A stretch of 64,000 nucleotides of DNA from contig NZ_JAIQDE010000026.1 in the NCBI RefSeq assembly GCF_020037015.1, positions 1 to 64,000 of the forward strand, read 5' to 3'. The position numbers and the translations under genes are program-made. The DNA comes from Corallococcus sp. AS-1-6. Lineage in GTDB: Bacteria > Myxococcota > Myxococcia > Myxococcales > Myxococcaceae. Below, piece by piece: positions 5,644 through 35,085 of the stretch (position 1 is the first letter of the stretch; the number at the start of each line of letters is the position of its first letter). Below the pieces are notes generated by a model. That model saw nothing but the letters and a program-made list of their open reading frames with translations, ran no database searches and was not told the DNA's origin.

Positions 5644-6329
5644 TTGAGGAACACGGCGCTGCGCGGGACGCCGCGCTGGCCCAGTTGGGCCATCACGTCC
5701 TGCACCATGTCCTGGGGGCCGCACACGAAGGCGATGGCGTGCTCCAGCCGCTCCTCGCCCAGGTGGGCCTGCACGTAGCCGGTGAGGCCCTGCCAGCCGC
5801 TGGCGCCGGGGCGGCTCACGGTGCACAGCACGCGCACGCCGTCCGCCTGCCACTGCTGCAGCTCATGCTGGTACGCGAAGCCGCCCGCCGTGCGCGCGCC
5901 GAAGTACAGCGTCACCCGGCCATACGCGCCGCGCTCCTGGCGCACGGCGGCGATGACGGGGCGGATGGCGGAGATGCCGGAGCCGCTGGCGAACAGCAGC
6001 AGGTCTCGGCCGCGCGCCTTCTCCATGGGGAAGCCCGGGCCCGCCGGGAGCGTCACCTCCACGCGCGCCCCCAGGGGCAGGTGCAGCAGCGCGGACGGCA
6101 GCGAGCCTTCGTCCTTGAGGAGGAACTCCCACCGCGTGCCGGTGGGGGTGGGCGGCGAGGCGATGGCGAACATGCCCGGCTGCCCACCCGGGAGGCGCAG
6201 TTGGACGTACTGCCCCGGGTGGGTGTGCGAGCCCACGAGCGGCGTCCCGCCGACGTCGAGCACCCAGTCGGTGAGGCCATCCGCCGAGGGGGTGCGGGCG
6301 GTGACGGTGGCGGTGTGCCAGTCGCTCAT
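5637..6329 (-). CDS. FNR-type FAD/NAD(P)-binding oxidoreductase
   Basis: The 230-residue protein has the two domains of the ferredoxin-NADP reductase superfamily. The flavin domain holds PGQYVQLRL near residue 38 and MFAIASPP near 52, in place of the usual R-x-Y-S. The nucleotide domain holds G-S-G-I-S-A-I-R-P near 115 and the C-terminal C-G-P-Q-D-M near 205. There is no iron-sulfur or haem domain, so it is a stand-alone reductase whose electron partner is not encoded next to it. It is convergent with the WD40 lipoprotein gene and divergent from the GT51-like gene. The exact substrate cannot be told. Confidence 0.8.
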   Translation of the reverse strand: MSDWHTATVTARTPSADGLTDWVLDVGGTPLVGSHTHPGQYVQLRLPGGQPGMFAIASPPTPTGTRWEFLLKDEGSLPSALLHLPLGARVEVTLPAGPGFPMEKARGRDLLLFASGSGISAIRPVIAAVRQERGAYGRVTLYFGARTAGGFAYQHELQQWQADGVRVLCTVSRPGASGWQGLTGYVQAHLGEERLEHAIAFVCGPQDMVQDVMAQLGQRGVPRSAVFLNY

Positions 6330-6368
6330 GGGGACTTTCTAACCCGTCCTCCTGGCGCGTGCCTCCCC

Positions 6369-6377
6369 TGCTAGAGT
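6369..6377 (+). promoter_or_regulatory. Extended -10 box TGC-TAGAGT, leaderless spacing
   Basis: TGC-TAGAGT occupies 6369-6377. Seven bases separate it from the GTG at 6385 and no ribosome-binding site intervenes. No convincing -35 is seen. Confidence 0.45.
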
Positions 6378-6384
6378 CGTGCCC

Positions 6385-7170
6385 GTGAAGACCGTGTTCT
6401 GGCTGTTCATGTTCCTCGTCGGTCTGGCCGGCGTGGTGATTCCGATCACGTACCTCTACACGGCCAGCAAGCTGCCGCGGCTGGAGAGCGAGTTCGACGT
6501 CGAGAGCCAGTTGCGCCATCGCATCGAGGGCGACCGGATGAGCGTGCTGGCCGGGCGGATGGACCAGGGCATCCGGGATCGCTCGTCGGTGACGTTCACG
6601 CGGCCGGACTTCTCGCGGATGCCCAAGGACCTGGTGGCGCTCTACATCCGCCAGATGAACTGCCCCACCTACTTCCAGACGCCGCGCGAGGACGGGCGCG
6701 CGTGGGCGTGGCGCCTGTTCGCCGGCGTGACGCTGGGCAAGGCGCCCCCCGGGGACGGCGCCTGTGAGCGGCGCCTGGCCATGCGCATCGCGCGGGAGAT
6801 GGGCATCGAAGGGGACCTGCAACTGTCCGTGGCCGCGCACCGGCTGCACGCCTTCTTCCAGAAGGACCAGCTCGTGGCCTACGACCTGTCCATCATCCGC
6901 TTCGAGCGCGGCGTCGTCGGCGTGGAGGACGCGGCCCGCAAGCTCTTCCACCGCGAGCTGGGGGAGCTCCAGTTGGCGGAGCTGGCGGAGCTGCAACTGG
7001 CGCTGCCGCCGTACGGCTATTACGGCGACATCAAGGCGTGCAAGAACGCCAGCCTCATCCGGCAGAACCGCGACATGCTGTTGCAGGACCTGGCGGGCTA
7101 CGCGCTGGTGAGCGAGGAGCGCGCGCGCAACGCCATCGCGCAGCCGGTGGCGTGCCTGTCGGTGAAGTAG
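6385..7170 (+). CDS. Degenerate GT51 transglycosylase-like membrane protein
   Basis: The 261-residue product starts with one transmembrane segment (residues about 4-24), then aligns by eye along the whole glycosyltransferase-51 domain of class A penicillin-binding proteins. The later part is clear: V-V-G-V-E-D-A-A-R-K-L-F-H-R-E-L-G near 175-190 corresponds to the G-x-x-A-A-x-x-Y-F-G-K segment, followed by LQLAELAELQLALPP and a C-terminal R-N-R/D-x-x-L-x-D-L helix. The catalytic E-D-x-x-F-Y motif is replaced by M-N-C-P-T-Y-F-Q, and the Q-Q-L-x-K-N motif by M-R-I-A-R-E-M, so it is probably not an enzyme. It may be a scaffold or regulator of a true synthase. The start GTG at 6385 follows TAGAGT by seven bases; a GTG at 6379 is in frame. 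Confidence 0.7.
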   Translation: MKTVFWLFMFLVGLAGVVIPITYLYTASKLPRLESEFDVESQLRHRIEGDRMSVLAGRMDQGIRDRSSVTFTRPDFSRMPKDLVALYIRQMNCPTYFQTPREDGRAWAWRLFAGVTLGKAPPGDGACERRLAMRIAREMGIEGDLQLSVAAHRLHAFFQKDQLVAYDLSIIRFERGVVGVEDAARKLFHRELGELQLAELAELQLALPPYGYYGDIKACKNASLIRQNRDMLLQDLAGYALVSEERARNAIAQPVACLSVK

Positions 7171-7177
7171 CCGGCGC

Positions 7178-7627
7178 TCAGCGCCGCACGTCCGCGGGCA
7201 CCTGGGGGAGCCAGCCCACCTCCAGCGCGCCCCACAGGCCCAGCAGGATGGCCTCCGCGGCGTCGTGGCGCAGCGAGGTGGGGCGGGGCGCGCGGGACCA
7301 GTCGATGACCCGCCGCGCGAGCGTGTCCGCGGCGTCCTTGGCCTGTGCGCCGCTGCGCTGCTCGCGCGCGTAGAGCAGCCGGTGGCGCCAGTCCTCCGCG
7401 GCCACGCGAAGCACGGGCAGGGCGCGGCGCAGGGCCTCGCGCTCCCAGACGTCCGCGATGGGGCCGCCGCCCTCCAGCACGAGCCACGCGAGCGGGGACG
7501 CTTCCTGGAGCACGGCGGGCACCGCGCGCTTGAGCCGCGCGTGCGTGCCCAGGTTCTGGGAGCGGTACCACTGAAGCCGCCCGTCCGCGCCGAAGCGCGC
7601 GAGCCCGCAGCGCAGGCCCAGGTCCAC
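7178..7627 (-). CDS. RuvC-like (RNase H fold) small protein
   Basis: The 149-residue product from a GTG at 7627 starts within an LLAVDLGLRCG-like first strand, contains W-L-V-L-E-G-G-G near residue 50 and ends with L-R-H-D-A-A-E-A-I-L-L-G-L-W near 120-133. An Asp on strand one, a central Glu and a C-terminal D-A-A-E-A motif are the arrangement of RuvC-type resolvases. The role is unknown; a Holliday junction or other nucleic acid processing enzyme is plausible. It lies 39 bases downstream of the kinase stop on the same strand. No ATG or GTG exists further upstream before the kinase stop, so the first hydrophobic residues of the strand are lost unless a CTG is used. It is convergent with the GT51-like gene. 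Confidence 0.65.
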   Translation of the reverse strand: MDLGLRCGLARFGADGRLQWYRSQNLGTHARLKRAVPAVLQEASPLAWLVLEGGGPIADVWEREALRRALPVLRVAAEDWRHRLLYAREQRSGAQAKDAADTLARRVIDWSRAPRPTSLRHDAAEAILLGLWGALEVGWLPQVPADVRR

Positions 7628-7665
7628 CGCGAGCAGCGCGGCGGGGCCTGGGGACGCGGGGAGCG

Positions 7666-9369
7666 TCAGAGGGCTTCCTGCTTGACCTCGTTGAGGTCCT
7701 TCACGATGCGCGCCCGGTCCGCGGCGGAGGACTCCTCGGTGGCCAACTGGAGCTGGTAGAGGAACCCGACGAAGTGCTTGCGCTCCGTCTCGCCCAGCTT
7801 CGTGTTGGCCTTCACCCTGGCGGCGACGGAGCGGATCTCCGCCAGGAGGTCTTCCTCGGAGGGGATCCGGCTGCCGCGGGACGTCGGGCGGCCCTCTGAC
7901 GGCGCGGCGTGCTTCGCCGCGACCCTGGGGGCCGGCTCCGCCTGCTTCGCGGGGGCCTCCACGACGGGGGCGGGCGGCGGCGGCGGGGTCGCTTCCCGCA
8001 CGGGCTCGGCGACGGCCTCCGGCGGAGGCTGCGTGGGCGTGGGGTCCGCCTTCGGGGTGGGCGGCGGCGGCGCGGCGACGGCGACGGCGGGCGGCGGCGT
8101 CCCACCCCCGCGCGTGGCGATGACCACGCCCACGGCGGCGAGCAGCACGGCCGCGCCCACGGCGATGGGGGCGAGGCGGCGCAGGGACGACGTCTCTTCC
8201 TGCGGCACCACCCTCAGGTCGTCCGGCGGGACCGGCGGCGGGACGTGGGTGGTGGGGCGGCGCGCGTCCGCGTCGCTGACGGCGACCGCGGGGGCGGCGG
8301 GCTTGGGCGGCGCGGGCTCGACGGGGGCGAGCGCGGTGGGGTTGGTGCGCGTGGCGCGCAGGGTGCGGCGCAGCTTGGCCAGGTGCTGACGCAGGGGGTC
8401 CGCGGAGTTGGGGCGCGTCTCCGGGTCCTTGGTGAGCATCTGCAGGATGAAGGCGTCCACTGCGGGCGGCAGGTCGGGGACGAACTCCGACGGCCGGGGC
8501 GGGCGCGCCTCCACGTGCTTCATGAGCAGGTCCACCGGGGAGCTGCCGATGAAGGGCAGCCGGCCGGTGATGATTTCGAAGGTGACGACGCCCATGGCGT
8601 ACAGGTCCGTCATGGGCCCCACGGACTGGCCGCGGGCCTGCTCGGGCGCCATGTACTCCGGCGTGCCGACGACCATGTCGGTGCGCGTCTGCGCGGTGCG
8701 GCCGGTGGGGCCTTCGCCGCGCTTGGCGAGCCCGAAGTCCAGCAGCTTCACGTAGCGCGAGCCGTCCGGCTGGCGCACGAGGAAGATGTTGCTGGGCTTC
8801 AGGTCGCGGTGCACCACGCCCGCGCCGTGCGCGGCGCCCAGGGCGGCGAGCACCTCATCCAACAGGGACAGGGCCTCCGGGACGGGGAGGCGGCCCTTCT
8901 CCGCGAGGATGGCGTCCAGCGGCTGGCCGTCCAGGTACTCCATGACGATGTACTGGCGACCGTCGGGGAGCTGGCCGAAGCCGAAGATGTCGATGATGCC
9001 GCGGTGGCGGATGGCGTTGACGGCGCGGGCCTCCGCGAGGAGGCGGGCCACCTGCTCGGACGAGTGCGCCAGCTCGGGGCGCAGCACCTTCACGGCGACG
9101 CGCTTGCCGATGAGGGGCTGGATGCCCTCGTAGACGAGCCCCATGCCGCCCACGCCGATGCGCGCGCGCAGCTCGTACTCGCCCAGCTTCAGGCCGATGA
9201 GGGGGTCGGTGATGGCGGTCGCTTCGGTACCGGGGTGCTCCACGATGACCTTCGGTTCCGGTGGAGTCGGATGGAACGACGACAGCACGACGGTGCCATC
9301 GCGAGGGCACACCGCCGTCTCGGACGGAACGGTGAGGCCGCAGGTTTCGCAGATCAGCTCGGAAGACAT
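7666..9369 (-). CDS. Eukaryote-type Ser/Thr protein kinase with zinc-ribbon-like N-terminus
   Basis: The 567-residue protein phosphorylates Ser/Thr residues and is probably anchored in the inner membrane. A Cys motif (C7, C10, C21) at the N-terminus resembles half of a zinc ribbon. The kinase domain runs from about residue 65 to 325, with glycine loop GVGGMG at 72-77, Lys94, the catalytic H-R-D-L-K-P-S-N with Asp189, D-F-G at 211-213 and a G-T-P-E-Y-M-A-P-E-Q activation segment. A Pro/Ala-rich linker follows, then one transmembrane helix near residues 400-420 and a proline-rich, charged C-terminus. The ATG at 9369 is preceded closely by GGTGGAG. Myxobacteria carry many such kinases; nothing here names its target. 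Confidence 0.92.
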   Translation of the reverse strand: MSSELICETCGLTVPSETAVCPRDGTVVLSSFHPTPPEPKVIVEHPGTEATAITDPLIGLKLGEYELRARIGVGGMGLVYEGIQPLIGKRVAVKVLRPELAHSSEQVARLLAEARAVNAIRHRGIIDIFGFGQLPDGRQYIVMEYLDGQPLDAILAEKGRLPVPEALSLLDEVLAALGAAHGAGVVHRDLKPSNIFLVRQPDGSRYVKLLDFGLAKRGEGPTGRTAQTRTDMVVGTPEYMAPEQARGQSVGPMTDLYAMGVVTFEIITGRLPFIGSSPVDLLMKHVEARPPRPSEFVPDLPPAVDAFILQMLTKDPETRPNSADPLRQHLAKLRRTLRATRTNPTALAPVEPAPPKPAAPAVAVSDADARRPTTHVPPPVPPDDLRVVPQEETSSLRRLAPIAVGAAVLLAAVGVVIATRGGGTPPPAVAVAAPPPPTPKADPTPTQPPPEAVAEPVREATPPPPPAPVVEAPAKQAEPAPRVAAKHAAPSEGRPTSRGSRIPSEEDLLAEIRSVAARVKANTKLGETERKHFVGFLYQLQLATEESSAADRARIVKDLNEVKQEAL

Positions 9370-31290: not shown

Positions 31291-33993
31291 CTACCGCGTC
31301 GCCAGCGTCTCCAGGTGCTGGCGGAGCGCGGCCGTGTCCCCCAGCCGTCCGTCCAGGCCCGGAAGGGGCTTCGCGGCCTGCTCGATGCGGCCCCGCGTGC
31401 GCGGCCCCGCGGCCACCAGCCACGCCACCCCCAGCGCCAGCTCCGCCACGTCCGGCGCCTGGCCCAACTGCGAGGCCAGCGCGAGCAGCGCGTCCACGGC
31501 CTTCTTCACCTGCGCGCCGTGCAGCGGGTGGCTGCTGGTGATGCCCTCGCGCAGGAGCACCAGCAGCACCCGCGCGGTGGCGCGGGCCTGGCGCACCGGC
31601 TCCGGCCCTTCACCCGCGCCGGCCCACAGCCCGTTCGCCAACTGCCGTCCCAGCAGGCCGCCCACGTCCTCGGTGGGGATGGACCCCTCCGCCACGGACA
31701 GCGGCTGGGACTCCTCCTGCTCGTAGAACACCTCCGCCTTCCCCTGGGCGCGCTCCAGCTCCGGGGCGGAGTCCGGGCCGCGAGCGACGGCCTTGGACGG
31801 CATCGCCGCGGACAGCAGCCGGTCGAAGAGGCCGCCCTTCTCCTTCTTCACGGACTCCTGCTCCCTGCGCGCCGTGGGCGCGGCCCGGCCTCCCACGGCC
31901 CCGGCGCCATCCGCGGACTCCGCCTGGAAGGAGGCGCCGGTGGTGGGCTCCGGCCCCAGGTCGCGCGCCGGTGCGGGTGCGGGGGCGGCGGCGGGGGCGG
32001 ACATGCCTGGCGGCGGCGGGGGCACCGCGCCGCCCCGGGAGCGGCTCGGCGCCGCCCCGGGCGCGGGCATCGGCTTCGACACCCTCCGCTTCAGCACGCG
32101 CGCCTGCTCCTGCGCGAGCCCGCCCTCCGGCACCTCGTCATCCACGTCCCGCGCGGTCTGGTTGAACATGCTCCAGCCCGCGGGCGCGTTCACCGGCACC
32201 ACGCGCGTCTCCGGCGTGCCGGACGCGCGGCGGTCGCCCTGGCGCTCCTCCACCACCACGAACGACGTGTAGGGCGTGGCCAACTGGTGCTCGATGGCGA
32301 GCCGCACGATGCGCTCCTTCATCGCCTCCGCGCGCCGGCCCACCAGCCCCGCGTCCATCCAGCCCCGGATGCGCTCGGCGGCCCACAGCTTCTCCACCAC
32401 CGGCCGGTCCGACTGCGCGGGCAGCTCCAACCGCACCGTGAGGGAGAAGGGCTCCCGGCCCGACTTCCCCTTCAGCGTCACGCTGCCCGTGCCCGCCTGC
32501 GCATAGCGCCCGAAGAGCGTCCACGGCGTGCCGTCCACCAGCGGCGGCAGCGTGGACGGCGCCAGCTCGCTGGCCTCCACGCCGTCGAAGCGCACCTCCA
32601 GGTCGGTGACGCGCGGCGCGAGCGCCCGCGAGAACTGCGCCACCACCTTCTCGTCGATGCGCTCCCCGGGGTGGATGAACTCCACCGCGCCGTCCGTGCG
32701 CCGCGCCAGGTCGCGCAGGAGCGCGTCGCTCACGTTGGTGCCGATGCCGAACGAGAACACCCGCCCCGCCCCGCGCGCCGCGAGCACCGCGTTGAGGATC
32801 TCCTCCTCGTTGCCCACCTGGCCGTCCGTCAGCAGCACCACCACGCCGTCCGGCGCGGCCTTCATCGCGGTGACCATCGGCTCCAGCAGCTCCGTGCCGC
32901 CATAGGCCTTCAGCCCCGCGACCCACGCGTCCGCCTGCTCCAGCGTGCGCTGGGTGAACGGCACCGTCTGCGCGGAGAAGGAGCGGAAGGAGTTCTCGAA
33001 CGCGATGACGTTGAAGCGGTCGCCTTCACGCAGGTGGCGCAGGCACAGCCGGAGCGCGGCCTGGGCCTGGGGCAGGCTGTCGCCGTCCATGGAGCCGGAC
33101 GTGTCCACCACGAACACCACCTCCTGCCGGGGCGGCGTCGTCGCCAGGTTCAAGAGGTCCGGCACCACCGTGAGCGCGAACGTGCCCGGGCCTTCCGCCT
33201 TCCGGTGCGTGACGACGGGCGTGAGCATCACGTCCGGGTTGGCGTTGCGCATCGTGAGCACCACGTCGCGGTCCAGCGCCACCTCGTCGCCCGCGAAGTC
33301 CTTGAGGAGCGAGTCGCGCCGCAGGTTCACCCGCGTGCGCGTGCCGTCCTTCGCGACGGTGATGCGGTGGGACGGGCTCTCCACCACCACGTCACGGCCC
33401 ACGTCGATGAGCAGGTCCATGCGCAGCCCGTAGTCCACCGCGCCCGTGGGCGGGGTGATGCGGTCCGCGTCCGGCACCCGCGTCGTCGGGGCCGCGCTGC
33501 CGTGGCCGGTGCGGTCGCCGTGCACCGCGCCGGGGATGTACCGGGGCGCCACCAGCGTGGGCAGCATCCAGCGCACGCTGCCCTCCTCCGCGGTGAGCGT
33601 CTGGAGGAACTCCACCTCCACCCGCGTCTCCTCGCCCGGCAGCAGGTTGCCCACCTGCGCGGTGAAGACGTTGGCGCGCTCCTGGTCCAGCAGCGCCGCG
33701 CCGTGGCCTTCGGTGATGGCGTCGTCGTAGGCGCGGAAGGCGGCCTCGCGCTCCTTCACCACGCCGGCCACGCGGCGGCCCGCGCACGTCATGGAGAAGG
33801 CGCTGAGCGTCGCGTCGGAGGGCAGGGGGAAGGTGTAGAGGGCCTCCACCGGCCTCTTCTCGTCGTTGCGGTAGCGCTGCGTCACGCGCACCCGCGCGTG
33901 CCCCCCGAGCAGCTCACCGGTGACCTCCACTCCCTGCAGGGGCACCTGGGCGCCCTCACGCGTGAACAGCCCACACTTCGCCTGCTCGTTCAT
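31291..33993 (-). CDS. VIT and VWA domain protein
   Basis: The 900-residue product lacks a signal peptide. An N-terminal VIT domain (about residues 8-140, with A-L-Y-T-F-P-L-P-S-D-A-T near 51) is followed by a VWA domain (about 290-465) with the MIDAS D-T-S-G-S at 297-301, a T-D-G-Q-V near 390 and the downstream Thr site. Long Pro/Ala-rich and Ser-rich linkers lie from about 640 to 760, then a helical C-terminus. VIT/VWA proteins act as metal-dependent protein-binding scaffolds. It is co-translated with the MerR-type gene (ATGA overlap), which likely controls it. Confidence 0.9.
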   Translation of the reverse strand: MNEQAKCGLFTREGAQVPLQGVEVTGELLGGHARVRVTQRYRNDEKRPVEALYTFPLPSDATLSAFSMTCAGRRVAGVVKEREAAFRAYDDAITEGHGAALLDQERANVFTAQVGNLLPGEETRVEVEFLQTLTAEEGSVRWMLPTLVAPRYIPGAVHGDRTGHGSAAPTTRVPDADRITPPTGAVDYGLRMDLLIDVGRDVVVESPSHRITVAKDGTRTRVNLRRDSLLKDFAGDEVALDRDVVLTMRNANPDVMLTPVVTHRKAEGPGTFALTVVPDLLNLATTPPRQEVVFVVDTSGSMDGDSLPQAQAALRLCLRHLREGDRFNVIAFENSFRSFSAQTVPFTQRTLEQADAWVAGLKAYGGTELLEPMVTAMKAAPDGVVVLLTDGQVGNEEEILNAVLAARGAGRVFSFGIGTNVSDALLRDLARRTDGAVEFIHPGERIDEKVVAQFSRALAPRVTDLEVRFDGVEASELAPSTLPPLVDGTPWTLFGRYAQAGTGSVTLKGKSGREPFSLTVRLELPAQSDRPVVEKLWAAERIRGWMDAGLVGRRAEAMKERIVRLAIEHQLATPYTSFVVVEERQGDRRASGTPETRVVPVNAPAGWSMFNQTARDVDDEVPEGGLAQEQARVLKRRVSKPMPAPGAAPSRSRGGAVPPPPPGMSAPAAAPAPAPARDLGPEPTTGASFQAESADGAGAVGGRAAPTARREQESVKKEKGGLFDRLLSAAMPSKAVARGPDSAPELERAQGKAEVFYEQEESQPLSVAEGSIPTEDVGGLLGRQLANGLWAGAGEGPEPVRQARATARVLLVLLREGITSSHPLHGAQVKKAVDALLALASQLGQAPDVAELALGVAWLVAAGPRTRGRIEQAAKPLPGLDGRLGDTAALRQHLETLATR

Positions 33994-34478
33994 GACTGCG
34001 TTCCTTCCTGGGACTCCTCGATGAGGGCGCGCACCCGCTCCGCCAGCGCCCGGACCTTCGCTTCCGCCTGCTCCGACACGTGCAATTCCAACCCCGGCGC
34101 CAGGAGCCAGCGCTGGTAACGCGCCACCTCCACCGTCGGGTCTTTTCCCGGCCGCTTCAGCGGCATCCGGGGGGGCTCCTCCGGCACCGGCGACGTCCCC
34201 GGGCCCACCGGCGTCTCCGCCAGCCGGCGCAGCTCCTCCGGCGACAGCCGCAAGAGCTCCGCCTGGATGGCGTCCAGCGGCAGGAACCGGGCCTGGAGCA
34301 CCCGGATGGCCTTGAGCCGCACCCGGTGCTCCTCTCCGTAGACCGTGTCCGGCCCCTTGAAGGGCGGCGCGGGCAACAGGCCCCGCTGGACGTAATAGCG
34401 GACCGTGCGAGGCGAGACGCCCACCTCCTCCGCCAGCGCGGTCAGCTTCCACTCCGTCTGTGTCTTGGGCGTGCTCAC
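33990..34478 (-). CDS. MerR-family transcription regulator
   Basis: The 162-residue product has the N-terminal winged helix W-K-L-T-A-L-A-E-E-V-G-V-S-P-R-T-V-R-Y-Y-V-Q-R-G-L-L-P (about residues 10-36), with helical continuation to about 80, and a C-terminal Glu/Arg-rich coiled-coil tail. There are no metal-binding Cys residues. The start GTG at 34478 is seven bases after TACTGT in a consensus promoter, so the earlier TTG of the open frame is not used. It is the first gene of a two-gene operon with the VIT/VWA gene and probably regulates its own operon. Confidence 0.88.
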   Translation of the reverse strand: MSTPKTQTEWKLTALAEEVGVSPRTVRYYVQRGLLPAPPFKGPDTVYGEEHRVRLKAIRVLQARFLPLDAIQAELLRLSPEELRRLAETPVGPGTSPVPEEPPRMPLKRPGKDPTVEVARYQRWLLAPGLELHVSEQAEAKVRALAERVRALIEESQEGTQS

Positions 34479-34485
34479 GAACCTG

Positions 34486-34514
34486 ACAGTATGTTGTGAC
34501 AGCTCGACTGTCAA
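34486..34514 (-). promoter_or_regulatory. Consensus promoter and dyad operator of the merR-VIT/VWA operon
   Basis: On the minus strand TTGACA (34514-34509), 17 bases and TACTGT (34491-34486) form a near-perfect sigma-70 type promoter, followed seven bases later by the GTG, so the mRNA is leaderless. TGACAG and CTGTCA make a perfect inverted repeat with a five-base centre (34513-34497), and a second CTGTCA overlaps the -10. This is a good binding site for the MerR protein itself. Confidence 0.75.
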
Positions 34515-34593
34515 GACGTCGGTGGCGATTCGTCAGTGGAAGTGTCGGGATGCGGGAGGTGGCGGCCGGGCGGGCGGTGGGCCAGAAGGGGGC

Positions 34594-35085
34594 ATGAACG
34601 TCGGCGTGGAAGGCCTGGACCCCTCCTCCATCCAGCTCATCGGTACGGCGGTGACGCCCGCGGTGATGGTGTCCGGGTGCGGCATCCTGGCCACCGGCCT
34701 GGACAATCAGATTTCGCGCATCACCGCGCGCATGCGGGACATGGTCCGGGAGTGGCGCACGCTGCCGGAGGGCCACGCGCGCCGGTCGCTCCTGCGCGAG
34801 GAGGTGGCCATCCTGGACCGCCGCCACGCCATCCTCGCCCGGGCCATCGGCCTTACCTACGCGGCGCTCCTGTCCTTCGTGGTGACGTCGCTCTTGTACC
34901 TGCTGCGCCGCAGCGTCGCGGTGCCGGAGGGGCTGCCGGTGATGTCCTTCTCCCTGGGCGTGGGGCTGTTGGGCTCCACGGCGGTGCTGGCCCTGGCGTC
35001 GCTGCGCTTGAGCCGCCGCGCCATCACGCTGGAGGGCGCCGAGCTGTTTCGCGACGAGCGGCCGGACGGGCCTCCCGCGCCCTGA
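34594..35085 (+). CDS. DUF2721 family membrane protein
   Basis: The 163-residue product has an N-terminal membrane segment I-Q-L-I-G-T-A-V-T-P-A-V-M-V-S-G-C-G-I-L, a charged helix pair with D-N-Q-I-S-R-I-T-A-R-M-R-D, two further hydrophobic helices (about 93-111 and 123-140) and a charged tail. The A-x-x-P-x-x-x-x-S-x-x-G-I-L pattern is that of DUF2721. Function is unknown. AGAAGGGGG lies near the ATG. It is divergent from the merR operon. Confidence 0.8.
   Translation: MNVGVEGLDPSSIQLIGTAVTPAVMVSGCGILATGLDNQISRITARMRDMVREWRTLPEGHARRSLLREEVAILDRRHAILARAIGLTYAALLSFVVTSLLYLLRRSVAVPEGLPVMSFSLGVGLLGSTAVLALASLRLSRRAITLEGAELFRDERPDGPPAP

What the first reader, a model, noticed from the sequence alone, without database searches (positions are those of the whole stretch)
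34478..34514. Perfect leaderless promoter with dyad operator ahead of merR-VIT/VWA
TTGACA-17-TACTGT is followed seven bases on by GTG. A perfect inverted repeat TGACAG-5-CTGTCA covers the -35 and the spacer and a third half-site CTGTCA overlaps the -10. In a genome of about 70% G+C this stands out. The MerR-type protein is encoded first, so autoregulation of a VIT/VWA scaffold protein is implied, a control circuit I have not seen described.
Basis: partly seen in the sequence, partly recalled or inferred. Interest (0 to 1): 0.55.

Follow-up and report, generated by a model that had tools for sequence, protein, structure and literature searches.

The report
Self-regulating leaderless promoter for MerR–VIT/VWA
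A two-gene bacterial unit (a MerR-type DNA-binding switch followed by a large VIT/VWA protein) appears to start from a promoter that lies inside the switch's own probable binding site and begins right at the start codon, and this unusual layout is kept in many unrelated bacteria.

Summary
On the minus strand, TTGACA-17-TACTGT ends 7 nt before a GTG, and TGACAG-N5-CTGTCA occurs once in the 9.5 Mb genome. In one genome this is near chance; comparison makes the case. All 61 family orthologues keep TTGACA-17-TAnnGT 6-7 nt before GTG/ATG, 59 of 61 keep the spacer half-site, and DNA further upstream is not conserved. The letter-perfect dyad is local (4 of 61). Four genomes show no divergent DUF2721 gene but keep the element, so it belongs to merR-VIT/VWA. 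A search with distant MerR proteins, blind to promoters, gave 80 loci titled as Planctomycetota, Myxococcota, Melainabacteria/Cyanobacteriota, Armatimonadota, Acidobacteriota, Chloroflexota and others. In 72 of 80 MerR precedes a VIT/VWA gene; in 56 of 69 testable loci a perfect TTGACA lies 33-39 nt before an in-frame start (shuffles 11 of 3450). Operator forms follow the MerR clade rather than the host, and strict motif searches find about one per genome. Best reading: a compact autorepression module on leaderless mRNA. Binding, repression and the 5' end are untested. CvkR is a published leaderless MerR repressor, apparently not autoregulated and without VIT/VWA.

The parts
34509..34514 (-). 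-35 element TTGACA, also the left operator half-site (TGACA)
   Evidence: TTGACA followed 17 nt later by TAnnGT in 61 of 61 family orthologues
34508..34513 (-). left arm TGACAG of the local dyad
   Evidence: sequence; once in the genome with the other arm; letter-perfect dyad in 4 of 61 orthologues, the window's own included
34497..34502 (-). right arm CTGTCA of the dyad, in the -35/-10 spacer
   Evidence: TGTC at this spacing in 59 of 61 orthologues; dyad centre -27 is the best of the centres tested, mean complementarity 0.686 against 0.248 (59 rows)
34484..34489 (-). third half-site CTGTCA overlapping the -10
   Evidence: full TTGACA-N7-TGTC-N6-TANTGTC in 46 of 61 orthologues; columns -13, -12, -9, -8 invariant in 59 rows
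34486..34491 (-). -10 element TACTGT
   Evidence: TACTGT in 56 of 61 orthologues, TACAGT, TAGTGT or TATTGT in the other 5
34518..34524 (-). conserved block upstream of the -35 (family CA[C/G]TGnC, here CACCGAC); possible fourth half-site
   Evidence: columns -46, -45 and -42 at 90%, 97% and 95% in 61 rows; the window is one letter off the consensus
34476..34478 (-). GTG start codon of merR, predicted at or within a base or two of the mRNA 5' end
   Evidence: GTG in 54 and ATG in 7 of 61; no Shine-Dalgarno-like 4- or 5-mer upstream in 61 of 61
33990..34478 (-). merR gene, 162 aa: winged HTH, low-confidence linker, C-terminal beta-beta-alpha tail
   Evidence: PF13411 E 1.3e-13; AlphaFold2 model, block pLDDT 88-96 for residues 11-90 and 77-87 for 121-160
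31291..33993 (-). VIT/VWA gene, 900 aa, start overlapping the merR stop (ATGA)
   Evidence: PF08487 E 5e-32, PF13768 E 1.3e-21; MIDAS-like DTSGS in the translation

Best explanation
This is the control region of a self-contained two-gene module. MerR binds several TGACA/TGTCA half-sites laid over the -35, the spacer and the -10 of its own sigma-A-type promoter and shuts out RNA polymerase, so it represses merR and the co-transcribed VIT/VWA gene. Transcription starts at or next to the start codon, so MerR is made from a leaderless mRNA and the VIT/VWA protein by coupled translation through the ATGA overlap. A signal, possibly relayed by the VIT/VWA protein docking on MerR's C-terminal tail, would lift repression. 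Shown here: the DNA layout, its conservation, and its co-variation with the MerR clade. Inferred: MerR binding, repression rather than activation, the leaderless 5' end, and the VIT/VWA feedback.
For: 61 of 61 family orthologues keep the promoter at a near-fixed distance from the start (36 nt from TTGACA in 59, 35 in 2), 59 of 61 keep the extra spacer half-site, which sigma-70 does not need, and DNA at -110..-58 is not conserved. None of 61 has a Shine-Dalgarno-like 4- or 5-mer upstream of the start, and none an AGG, GGA or GAG at -14..-5. In L056, L057, L060 and L062 no DUF2721 gene is found in the 2.3-2.5 kb upstream, yet the element is kept. VIT/VWA follows merR in all 61 and in 72 of 80 loci of the genome scan. 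In 56 of 69 of those loci a perfect TTGACA lies 33-39 nt before an in-frame start, against 11 of 3450 shuffles; in 38 of the 59 passing loci the distance is 35. The best dyad centre differs by MerR clade (+12.5, +22, +9, +9.5 from TTGACA). Operators of one clade in different host sets differ at 11.1 of 29 positions on average, those of different clades within Myxococcota at 20.1. With motifs taken from these loci the operator is found about once per genome (of 20 genomes 17 have one place on both strands, 1 on one strand, 2 none; of 19 genomes 18 have one, 1 has two). In that last genome the second copy precedes a second VIT/VWA gene with no ORF of 90 aa or more between it and the first.
Against: No 5' end, binding or expression data. 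L063 (G044), a true merR-VIT/VWA pair, lacks the element. 10 of 69 loci fail the TTGACA-to-start test even with one mismatch; by eye L137, L140-L142 (gammaproteobacterial bins) and L184 keep half-sites with a longer leader, and L131 shows nothing in the stretch printed. With one mismatch allowed shuffles pass in 239 of 3450. In 19 of 61 family orthologues another in-frame start codon lies between the -35 and the proposed start, and 29 of 61 have an AGG, GGA or GAG within the last 12 nt, though too close for a usual Shine-Dalgarno spacing. GUG is a poor start on leaderless mRNA in some bacteria, good in others (PMC9031893, passages). The third half-site cannot be separated from -10 function. 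In one genome the promoter pattern is at chance frequency. The loci overlap in part with contigs fetched, so the two sets are not independent.
Confidence: 0.7

Rival explanations
1. MerR is an activator of its own operon in the classical MerR way (DNA distortion of an over-long spacer), rather than a simple repressor.
For: MerR-type HTH, E 1.3e-13 to PF13411; the dyad touches the spacer.
Against: The spacer is 17 bp in 61 of 61 orthologues and the -35 is consensus; the dyad overlaps the -35 instead of being centred in the spacer. The distant loci add little here, because the promoter tests admitted only spacers of 15-18 bp. That classical MerR activation uses a 19-20 bp spacer is recalled.
Confidence: 0.12
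2. The dyad is the site of another regulator (or serves the divergent DUF2721 gene), and merR-VIT/VWA is only a target.
For: A divergent DUF2721 gene starts 116 bp from merR in the window and is found in most relatives; binding by MerR is not tested.
Against: The element persists in 4 genomes without a DUF2721 match upstream; it goes with merR across phyla, its form follows the MerR clade rather than the host, and strict motif searches find about one per genome.
Confidence: 0.08
3. The conservation is only a good promoter: TTGACA plus a tolerated -10, the repeats being incidental.
For: TTGACA is itself the sigma-70 -35 consensus and contains TGACA; promoter and dyad are each near chance in one genome.
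Against: The spacer half-site TGTC is kept in 59 of 61 though sigma-70 does not read it; the dyad centre -27 scores 0.686 against a mean of 0.248; in clade A palindromes reach 12 of 12 pairs in 2 loci (L118, L126).
Confidence: 0.06
4. The start is not leaderless: the mRNA starts upstream of this promoter or merR starts elsewhere on a led mRNA.
For: No 5' mapping; 19 of 61 orthologues have another in-frame start codon between the -35 and the proposed start; L063 and 10 of 69 distant loci lack the layout.
Against: GTG/ATG interchange at a fixed position; in 13 of 61 an in-frame stop lies within the 36 nt upstream; no Shine-Dalgarno-like 4- or 5-mer in 61 of 61; of the 56 orthologues with a further in-frame start within 120 nt downstream, 46 have it at codon 19 or later, inside the HTH.
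Confidence: 0.13

Closest known systems
CvkR (Alr3614), MerR-type repressor of type V-K CRISPR-associated transposons (PMC9938897; abstract and passages seen; structure 7xn2)
   Same: Small MerR-type regulator made from a leaderless mRNA; winged HTH plus a short non-classical C-terminal part; first Foldseek hit of the model by E-value, 6.5e-4, though with rmsd 20.3 there and only rank 41, Z 8.8 over 79 residues, in VIA-align
   Different: CvkR acts on cas12k, and the authors' gel shifts point away from autoregulation; its motif AnnACATnATGTnnT is not in this site by eye; no VIT/VWA partner
HspR and its HAIR operator CTTGAGT-N7-ACTCAAG (PMC6102357; passages seen)
   Same: MerR-family repressor acting on its own promoter; the Myxococcaceae consensus CTTGACA-N7-TGTCGAG has the same 7-7-7 geometry and similar outer letters; HspR also extends to flanking sites
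   Different: HspR controls heat-shock operons; inner letters and partner gene differ
GlnR/TnrA with the glnRA operon (recalled; GlnR or TnrA structures appear among the hits)
   Same: MerR-family autorepressor encoded first, with its partner protein encoded next; short C-terminal tail instead of a long dimer helix
   Different: Operator TGTNA-N7-TNACA (recalled) has the opposite half-site orientation; the partner is glutamine synthetase, not VIT/VWA
Leaderless repressor mRNAs of lambda cI and Tn1721 tetR (named in a passage of PMC9938897)
   Same: Repressor genes translated from leaderless mRNA
   Different: Other repressor families, not coupled to a VIT/VWA gene
ArnA-ArnB, archaeal motility repression pair (PMC6509490, passages)
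   Same: A vWA protein (its paralogue vWA2 has a beta-sandwich and an intact MIDAS) working together with a partner on gene expression
   Different: Archaeal, FHA partner, phosphorylation-dependent

Membership tests
MerR family | N-terminal MerR winged HTH | tested here: met
   PF13411 E 1.3e-13; HTH superposes on PbrR691/CadR at Z 11.4-11.7 over 72-73 residues
Classical MerR activators | 19-20 bp promoter spacer with the dyad centred in it (definition recalled) | tested here: not met
   17 bp spacer in 61 of 61 and dyad overlapping the -35
Classical MerR activators | long antiparallel dimerisation helix after the HTH (definition recalled) | tested here: inconclusive
   the monomer model shows only H80-87 and then a low-confidence linker
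CvkR subfamily | translated from leaderless mRNA | tested here: inconclusive
   predicted from promoter-to-start spacing in 61 of 61; no RNA data
CvkR subfamily | operator AnnACATnATGTnnT | tested here: not met
   by eye absent from window 34476-34524; no pattern search made
HspR | HAIR inverted repeat CTTGAGT-N7-ACTCAAG | tested here: inconclusive
   geometry and outer letters similar in the family consensus, inner letters differ; no search for HAIR made
HspR | controls heat-shock operons | tested here: inconclusive
   the co-directional neighbours are VIT/VWA and a 407-aa protein without a Pfam match, the divergent one DUF2721; a strict motif search finds only this site; the regulon was not tested
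GlnR/TnrA | TGTNA-N7-TNACA box (recalled) | tested here: not met
   by eye: half-sites have the opposite orientation, TGACA-N7-TGTCA
VIT/VWA proteins (ITIH, PARP4, VWA5A kind) | VIT domain followed by VWA domain | tested here: met
   PF08487 and PF13768; PARP4 and an ITIH chain are the best solved relatives, E 4.8e-37 and 1.3e-26

The most novel reading that the evidence does not exclude
merR-VIT/VWA is an undescribed, portable two-gene regulatory system spread over at least eight bacterial phyla (by record titles). Its promoter, operator and first codon form one unit of about 40 bp that travels with its own MerR. The VIT/VWA protein is the partner that senses and sets MerR activity, and leaderless translation is selected so that the module can still be made when ordinary initiation fails.
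Probability: 0.3. Interest if true: 0.78.

Novelty: new variant of a known kind. Interest (0 to 1): 0.6.

Why it matters
[quoted passage not shown] A dedicated regulator with a defined operator, recurring across phyla, gives a direct way to find the inducing signal and the partner, and a natural set of predicted leaderless transcripts in which to ask why leaderless starts are kept.

Tried and rejected
Tried: the single-genome argument is near chance level and was not used alone. One search used a pattern with the spacing wrong by one base; it missed the real site and stands only as an accidental control; one search is the corrected search. A strict promoter definition (TAnnnT -10, start at or before the match) catches only 27 of 69 loci with a perfect TTGACA, 29 with one mismatch allowed, shuffles 1 and 8 of 3450. 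The looser distance test catches 56 and 59, shuffles 11 and 239; it was written after I had seen those sequences, and its shuffles keep base composition only. The start positions used were chosen by me after reading the sequences. In one search some single loci have another best dyad centre, so the clade averages are the safer statement; clades were read off the tree by me, the best centre is the maximum of 62, and the host comparison sets Myxococcota against the rest. Clade C has no member outside Myxococcota, so it adds nothing to the cross-host comparison. A third conserved gene was sought in 19 wider neighbourhoods plus the window with mechanical ORF calling: only the VIT/VWA family (16 of 20) and the merR family (14 of 20) recur; family F2 is largely minus-strand ORFs over the VIT/VWA place, family F3 is minus-strand ORFs in 3 records, not followed up. 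No defence-system match beyond a weak MerR-type hit to 'mad1'. Literature: 10 searches listed no paper on a MerR-VIT/VWA pair; some were on other questions, most hits were seen as listings only, and the library is incomplete. A fold for the C-terminal tail alone was not sought; few of the solved chains listed reach it. The second structure job, for VIT/VWA, was not run.

Dropped rows: L001 is a copy of L002, and L063 lacks the element; both were left out of the 61. L013 and L014 (6 nt instead of 7) were left out of the column statistics but counted. The scan found 85 relatives and kept 80. Of these, 8 had no VIT/VWA within 2.5 kb (4 at contig ends: L125, L156, L158, L182; 4 others: L162, L172, L183, L186), and 3 more (L111, L128, L133) had under 150 nt upstream, leaving 69. 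The tree and one search use the 59 loci that pass the test plus 13 chosen family members, so loci without the layout are not in them. In one search, L082 and L083 (pairs cut off by a contig end) were not used; L094 and L095, which carry a similar MerR without VIT/VWA, were and fail the promoter test.

Full report
What is there. The window lies in a 9.5 Mb genome held as 82 contigs. One contig of a genome that the genome search places in the same family (G048:C608, 13,431 bases, locus L083) has the length of a public contig titled 'Archangiaceae bacterium' (L111), so I infer Myxococcaceae in the broad GTDB sense. On the minus strand, TTGACA (34514-34509), 17 nt, TACTGT (34491-34486), 7 nt and GTG (34478) precede merR (33990-34478, 162 aa). 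Its stop overlaps the ATG of a 900-aa VIT/VWA gene (31291-33993). TGACAG-N5-CTGTCA covers the -35 and the spacer, and a third CTGTCA overlaps the -10.

Is it more than chance? In one genome, barely. The perfect dyad occurs once. The combined motif has 6 matches at up to 3 mismatches against 3 for the reversed control, the real one being the only match with fewer than 2. The promoter-plus-start pattern occurs once, as does its reversed control. The answer comes from relatives. 67 of 96 genomes of the family have a MerR match at E 0.001 or better; I took 61 orthologues, the window's own included, and left out L063. Without gaps, 61 of 61 have TTGACA-17-TAnnGT, 59 of 61 the spacer half-site TGTC, and 46 of 61 the whole TTGACA-N7-TGTC-N6-TANTGTC; the letter-perfect dyad is in 4 of 61. 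The start codon (54 GTG, 7 ATG) is 7 nt from the -10 in 59 and 6 nt in 2. No orthologue has one of the Shine-Dalgarno-like 4- or 5-mers tested; 29 of 61 have an AGG, GGA or GAG in the last 12 nt, but none at -14..-5. In 59 rows, 16 of 31 columns of the element are at least 95% identical, against 0 of 53 columns at -110..-58. The best dyad centre of the region is -27, in the middle of the reported repeat. Against the leaderless reading, 19 of 61 have another in-frame start codon inside the promoter; for it, 13 of 61 have an in-frame stop there.

Whose element is it? The divergent neighbour is a DUF2721 gene (34594-35085). No match to it is found in the 2.3-2.5 kb upstream in L056, L057, L060 and L062, which keep the element. 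merR and VIT/VWA stay together in all 61 (L057 and L062 needed a search without composition correction to show the full VIT/VWA match).

Beyond the family. Searching the order and the phylum gave more distant MerR proteins. Of 14 further merR-VIT/VWA pairs with upstream DNA (13 from more distant MerR groups, plus L063), 12 meet a promoter signature (at most one mismatch in TTGACA, spacer 15-18, TAnnnT, 4-10 nt to the start), L086 nearly does, and L063 does not. A scan of the species-genome collection with an alignment of six distant MerR proteins, blind to promoters, found 85 relatives and kept 80 loci. 72 of 80 have VIT/VWA downstream on the same strand. Of 69 with enough upstream DNA, 56 have a perfect TTGACA and 59 one with at most one mismatch 33-39 nt before an in-frame start; shuffles give 11 and 239 of 3450. 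In 38 of the 59 the distance is exactly 35, the rest being 34, 36 or 38. Hosts by record title include Planctomycetota, Myxococcota, Candidatus Melainabacteria/Cyanobacteriota, Armatimonadota, Acidobacteriota, Chloroflexota, Elusimicrobiota, Vulcanimicrobiota, Pseudomonadota and two Catenulispora bins; many are metagenome bins whose labels may err. Some of these loci are the same contigs as, so the sets overlap.

Operator forms follow the regulator. I read four groups off the MerR tree. Group A (Planctomycetota, Nannocystis/Kofleria type Myxococcota, others) has a palindrome such as TGACACTGTCATATGACAGTGTCA centred 12.5 nt from the -35 start. Group B (Melainabacteria, some Myxococcota, Armatimonadota and others) has TTGACAGCATGACAGTAATTTGnnnnAATACTGTCATG or similar, centred at 22, its last half-site abutting the ATG. 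Group C (the window's family) is centred at 9, and group D (5 rows) at 9.5. Mean paired positions at the best centre are 8.9, 7.9, 7.2 and 7.0 of 12 against means over 62 centres of 3.0-3.2. Operators of one group in different host sets differ at 11.1 of 29 positions on average (241 pairs); those of different groups within Myxococcota differ at 20.1 (221 pairs). The nearest operator in the other host set belongs to the same group for 26 of 28 in A, 26 of 26 in B and 4 of 5 in D; group C has no member there. This is what a regulator reading its own operator predicts, and it also fits transfer of the whole unit. Motifs taken from these loci hit about once per genome: in group A, 17 of 20 genomes have one palindrome seen on both strands, 1 has it on one strand and 2 have none, their own site failing the motif; in group B, 18 of 19 genomes have one and one has two. 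In that genome the second copy, on the same strand, precedes a second VIT/VWA gene without its own merR in front. Because the motifs come from the loci, only the lack of further sites is informative.

The proteins. MerR is a winged HTH (best solved relatives PbrR691, CadR, CueR; GlnR and CvkR further down, CvkR first), a low-confidence linker and a beta-beta-alpha tail. The VIT/VWA protein is related in sequence to PARP4 and ITIH chains, with a DTSGS motif of MIDAS type in its translation. Only these two families recur in 19 wider neighbourhoods plus the window.

How it most likely works. The half-sites sit on the -35, the spacer and the -10 (in group B also against the start codon), the spacer in the window's family is of normal length and the -35 is consensus. 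That is a promoter which should need no activator and is covered by its regulator, so autorepression is the simplest reading (inference). In groups A and C the dyad lies upstream of the predicted RNA start, so it acts as DNA, not as an RNA hairpin. Leaderless initiation is predicted from spacing and the lack of Shine-Dalgarno motifs, not measured. That VIT/VWA feeds back on MerR is a guess by analogy with glnRA (recalled) and with the vWA protein ArnB working with ArnA (PMC6509490, passages).

Compared with what is known. CvkR is a MerR-type repressor shown to be expressed from leaderless mRNA, but its authors' gel shifts point away from autoregulation (PMC9938897, abstract and passages). HspR binds a HAIR-like repeat (consensus CTTGAGT-N7-ACTCAAG) on its own promoter and spreads to flanking sites (PMC6102357, passages); the Myxococcaceae consensus CTTGACA-N7-TGTCGAG has the same geometry. 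No paper on a MerR-VIT/VWA pair appeared in the listings of searches. I therefore call it a new variant of a known kind: MerR autorepression on a leaderless mRNA, with an unusual breadth of conservation and an unstudied partner.

Noticed in passing
L095:3154-5616; L162:3932-8468; L186:3962-8280: MerR proteins of the same type precede other large proteins: a 617-aa VWA protein without a VIT match (L095), and ORFs of 1200-1323 aa running to the end of the locus with MshEN/T2SSE domains and a weak TED match (L162) or an FHA domain (L186); L183 looks similar by eye.
   Followed up: partly
L233 (reverse strand), oriented 6032-6069 and 6206-9017: A second VIT/VWA gene with its own copy of the operator but ATA instead of ATG after it, hence a leader of about 137 nt if the mechanical start is right.
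   Followed up: partly
L176, L159, L163 and some other Obscuribacterales loci, upstream of the promoter: Further TGACAGTAA/TTACTGTCA-like sequences roughly 70-110 bp upstream of the operator, perhaps a second operator or looping site (by eye).
   Followed up: no
L047 (G002:C1:2035064-2035258): A copy of the merR C-terminal tail (query residues 92-156, 48% identical) lies just behind the VIT/VWA gene.
   Followed up: no
L122: The promoter leads to the ATG of a short ORF that ends in an overlap (ATGA) with the likely merR start, as if a leaderless mini-gene preceded merR (by eye).
   Followed up: no
window 34594-35085: A DUF2721 gene diverges from merR in most relatives, with a spacing that varies from about 106 to 250 bp.
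   Followed up: partly
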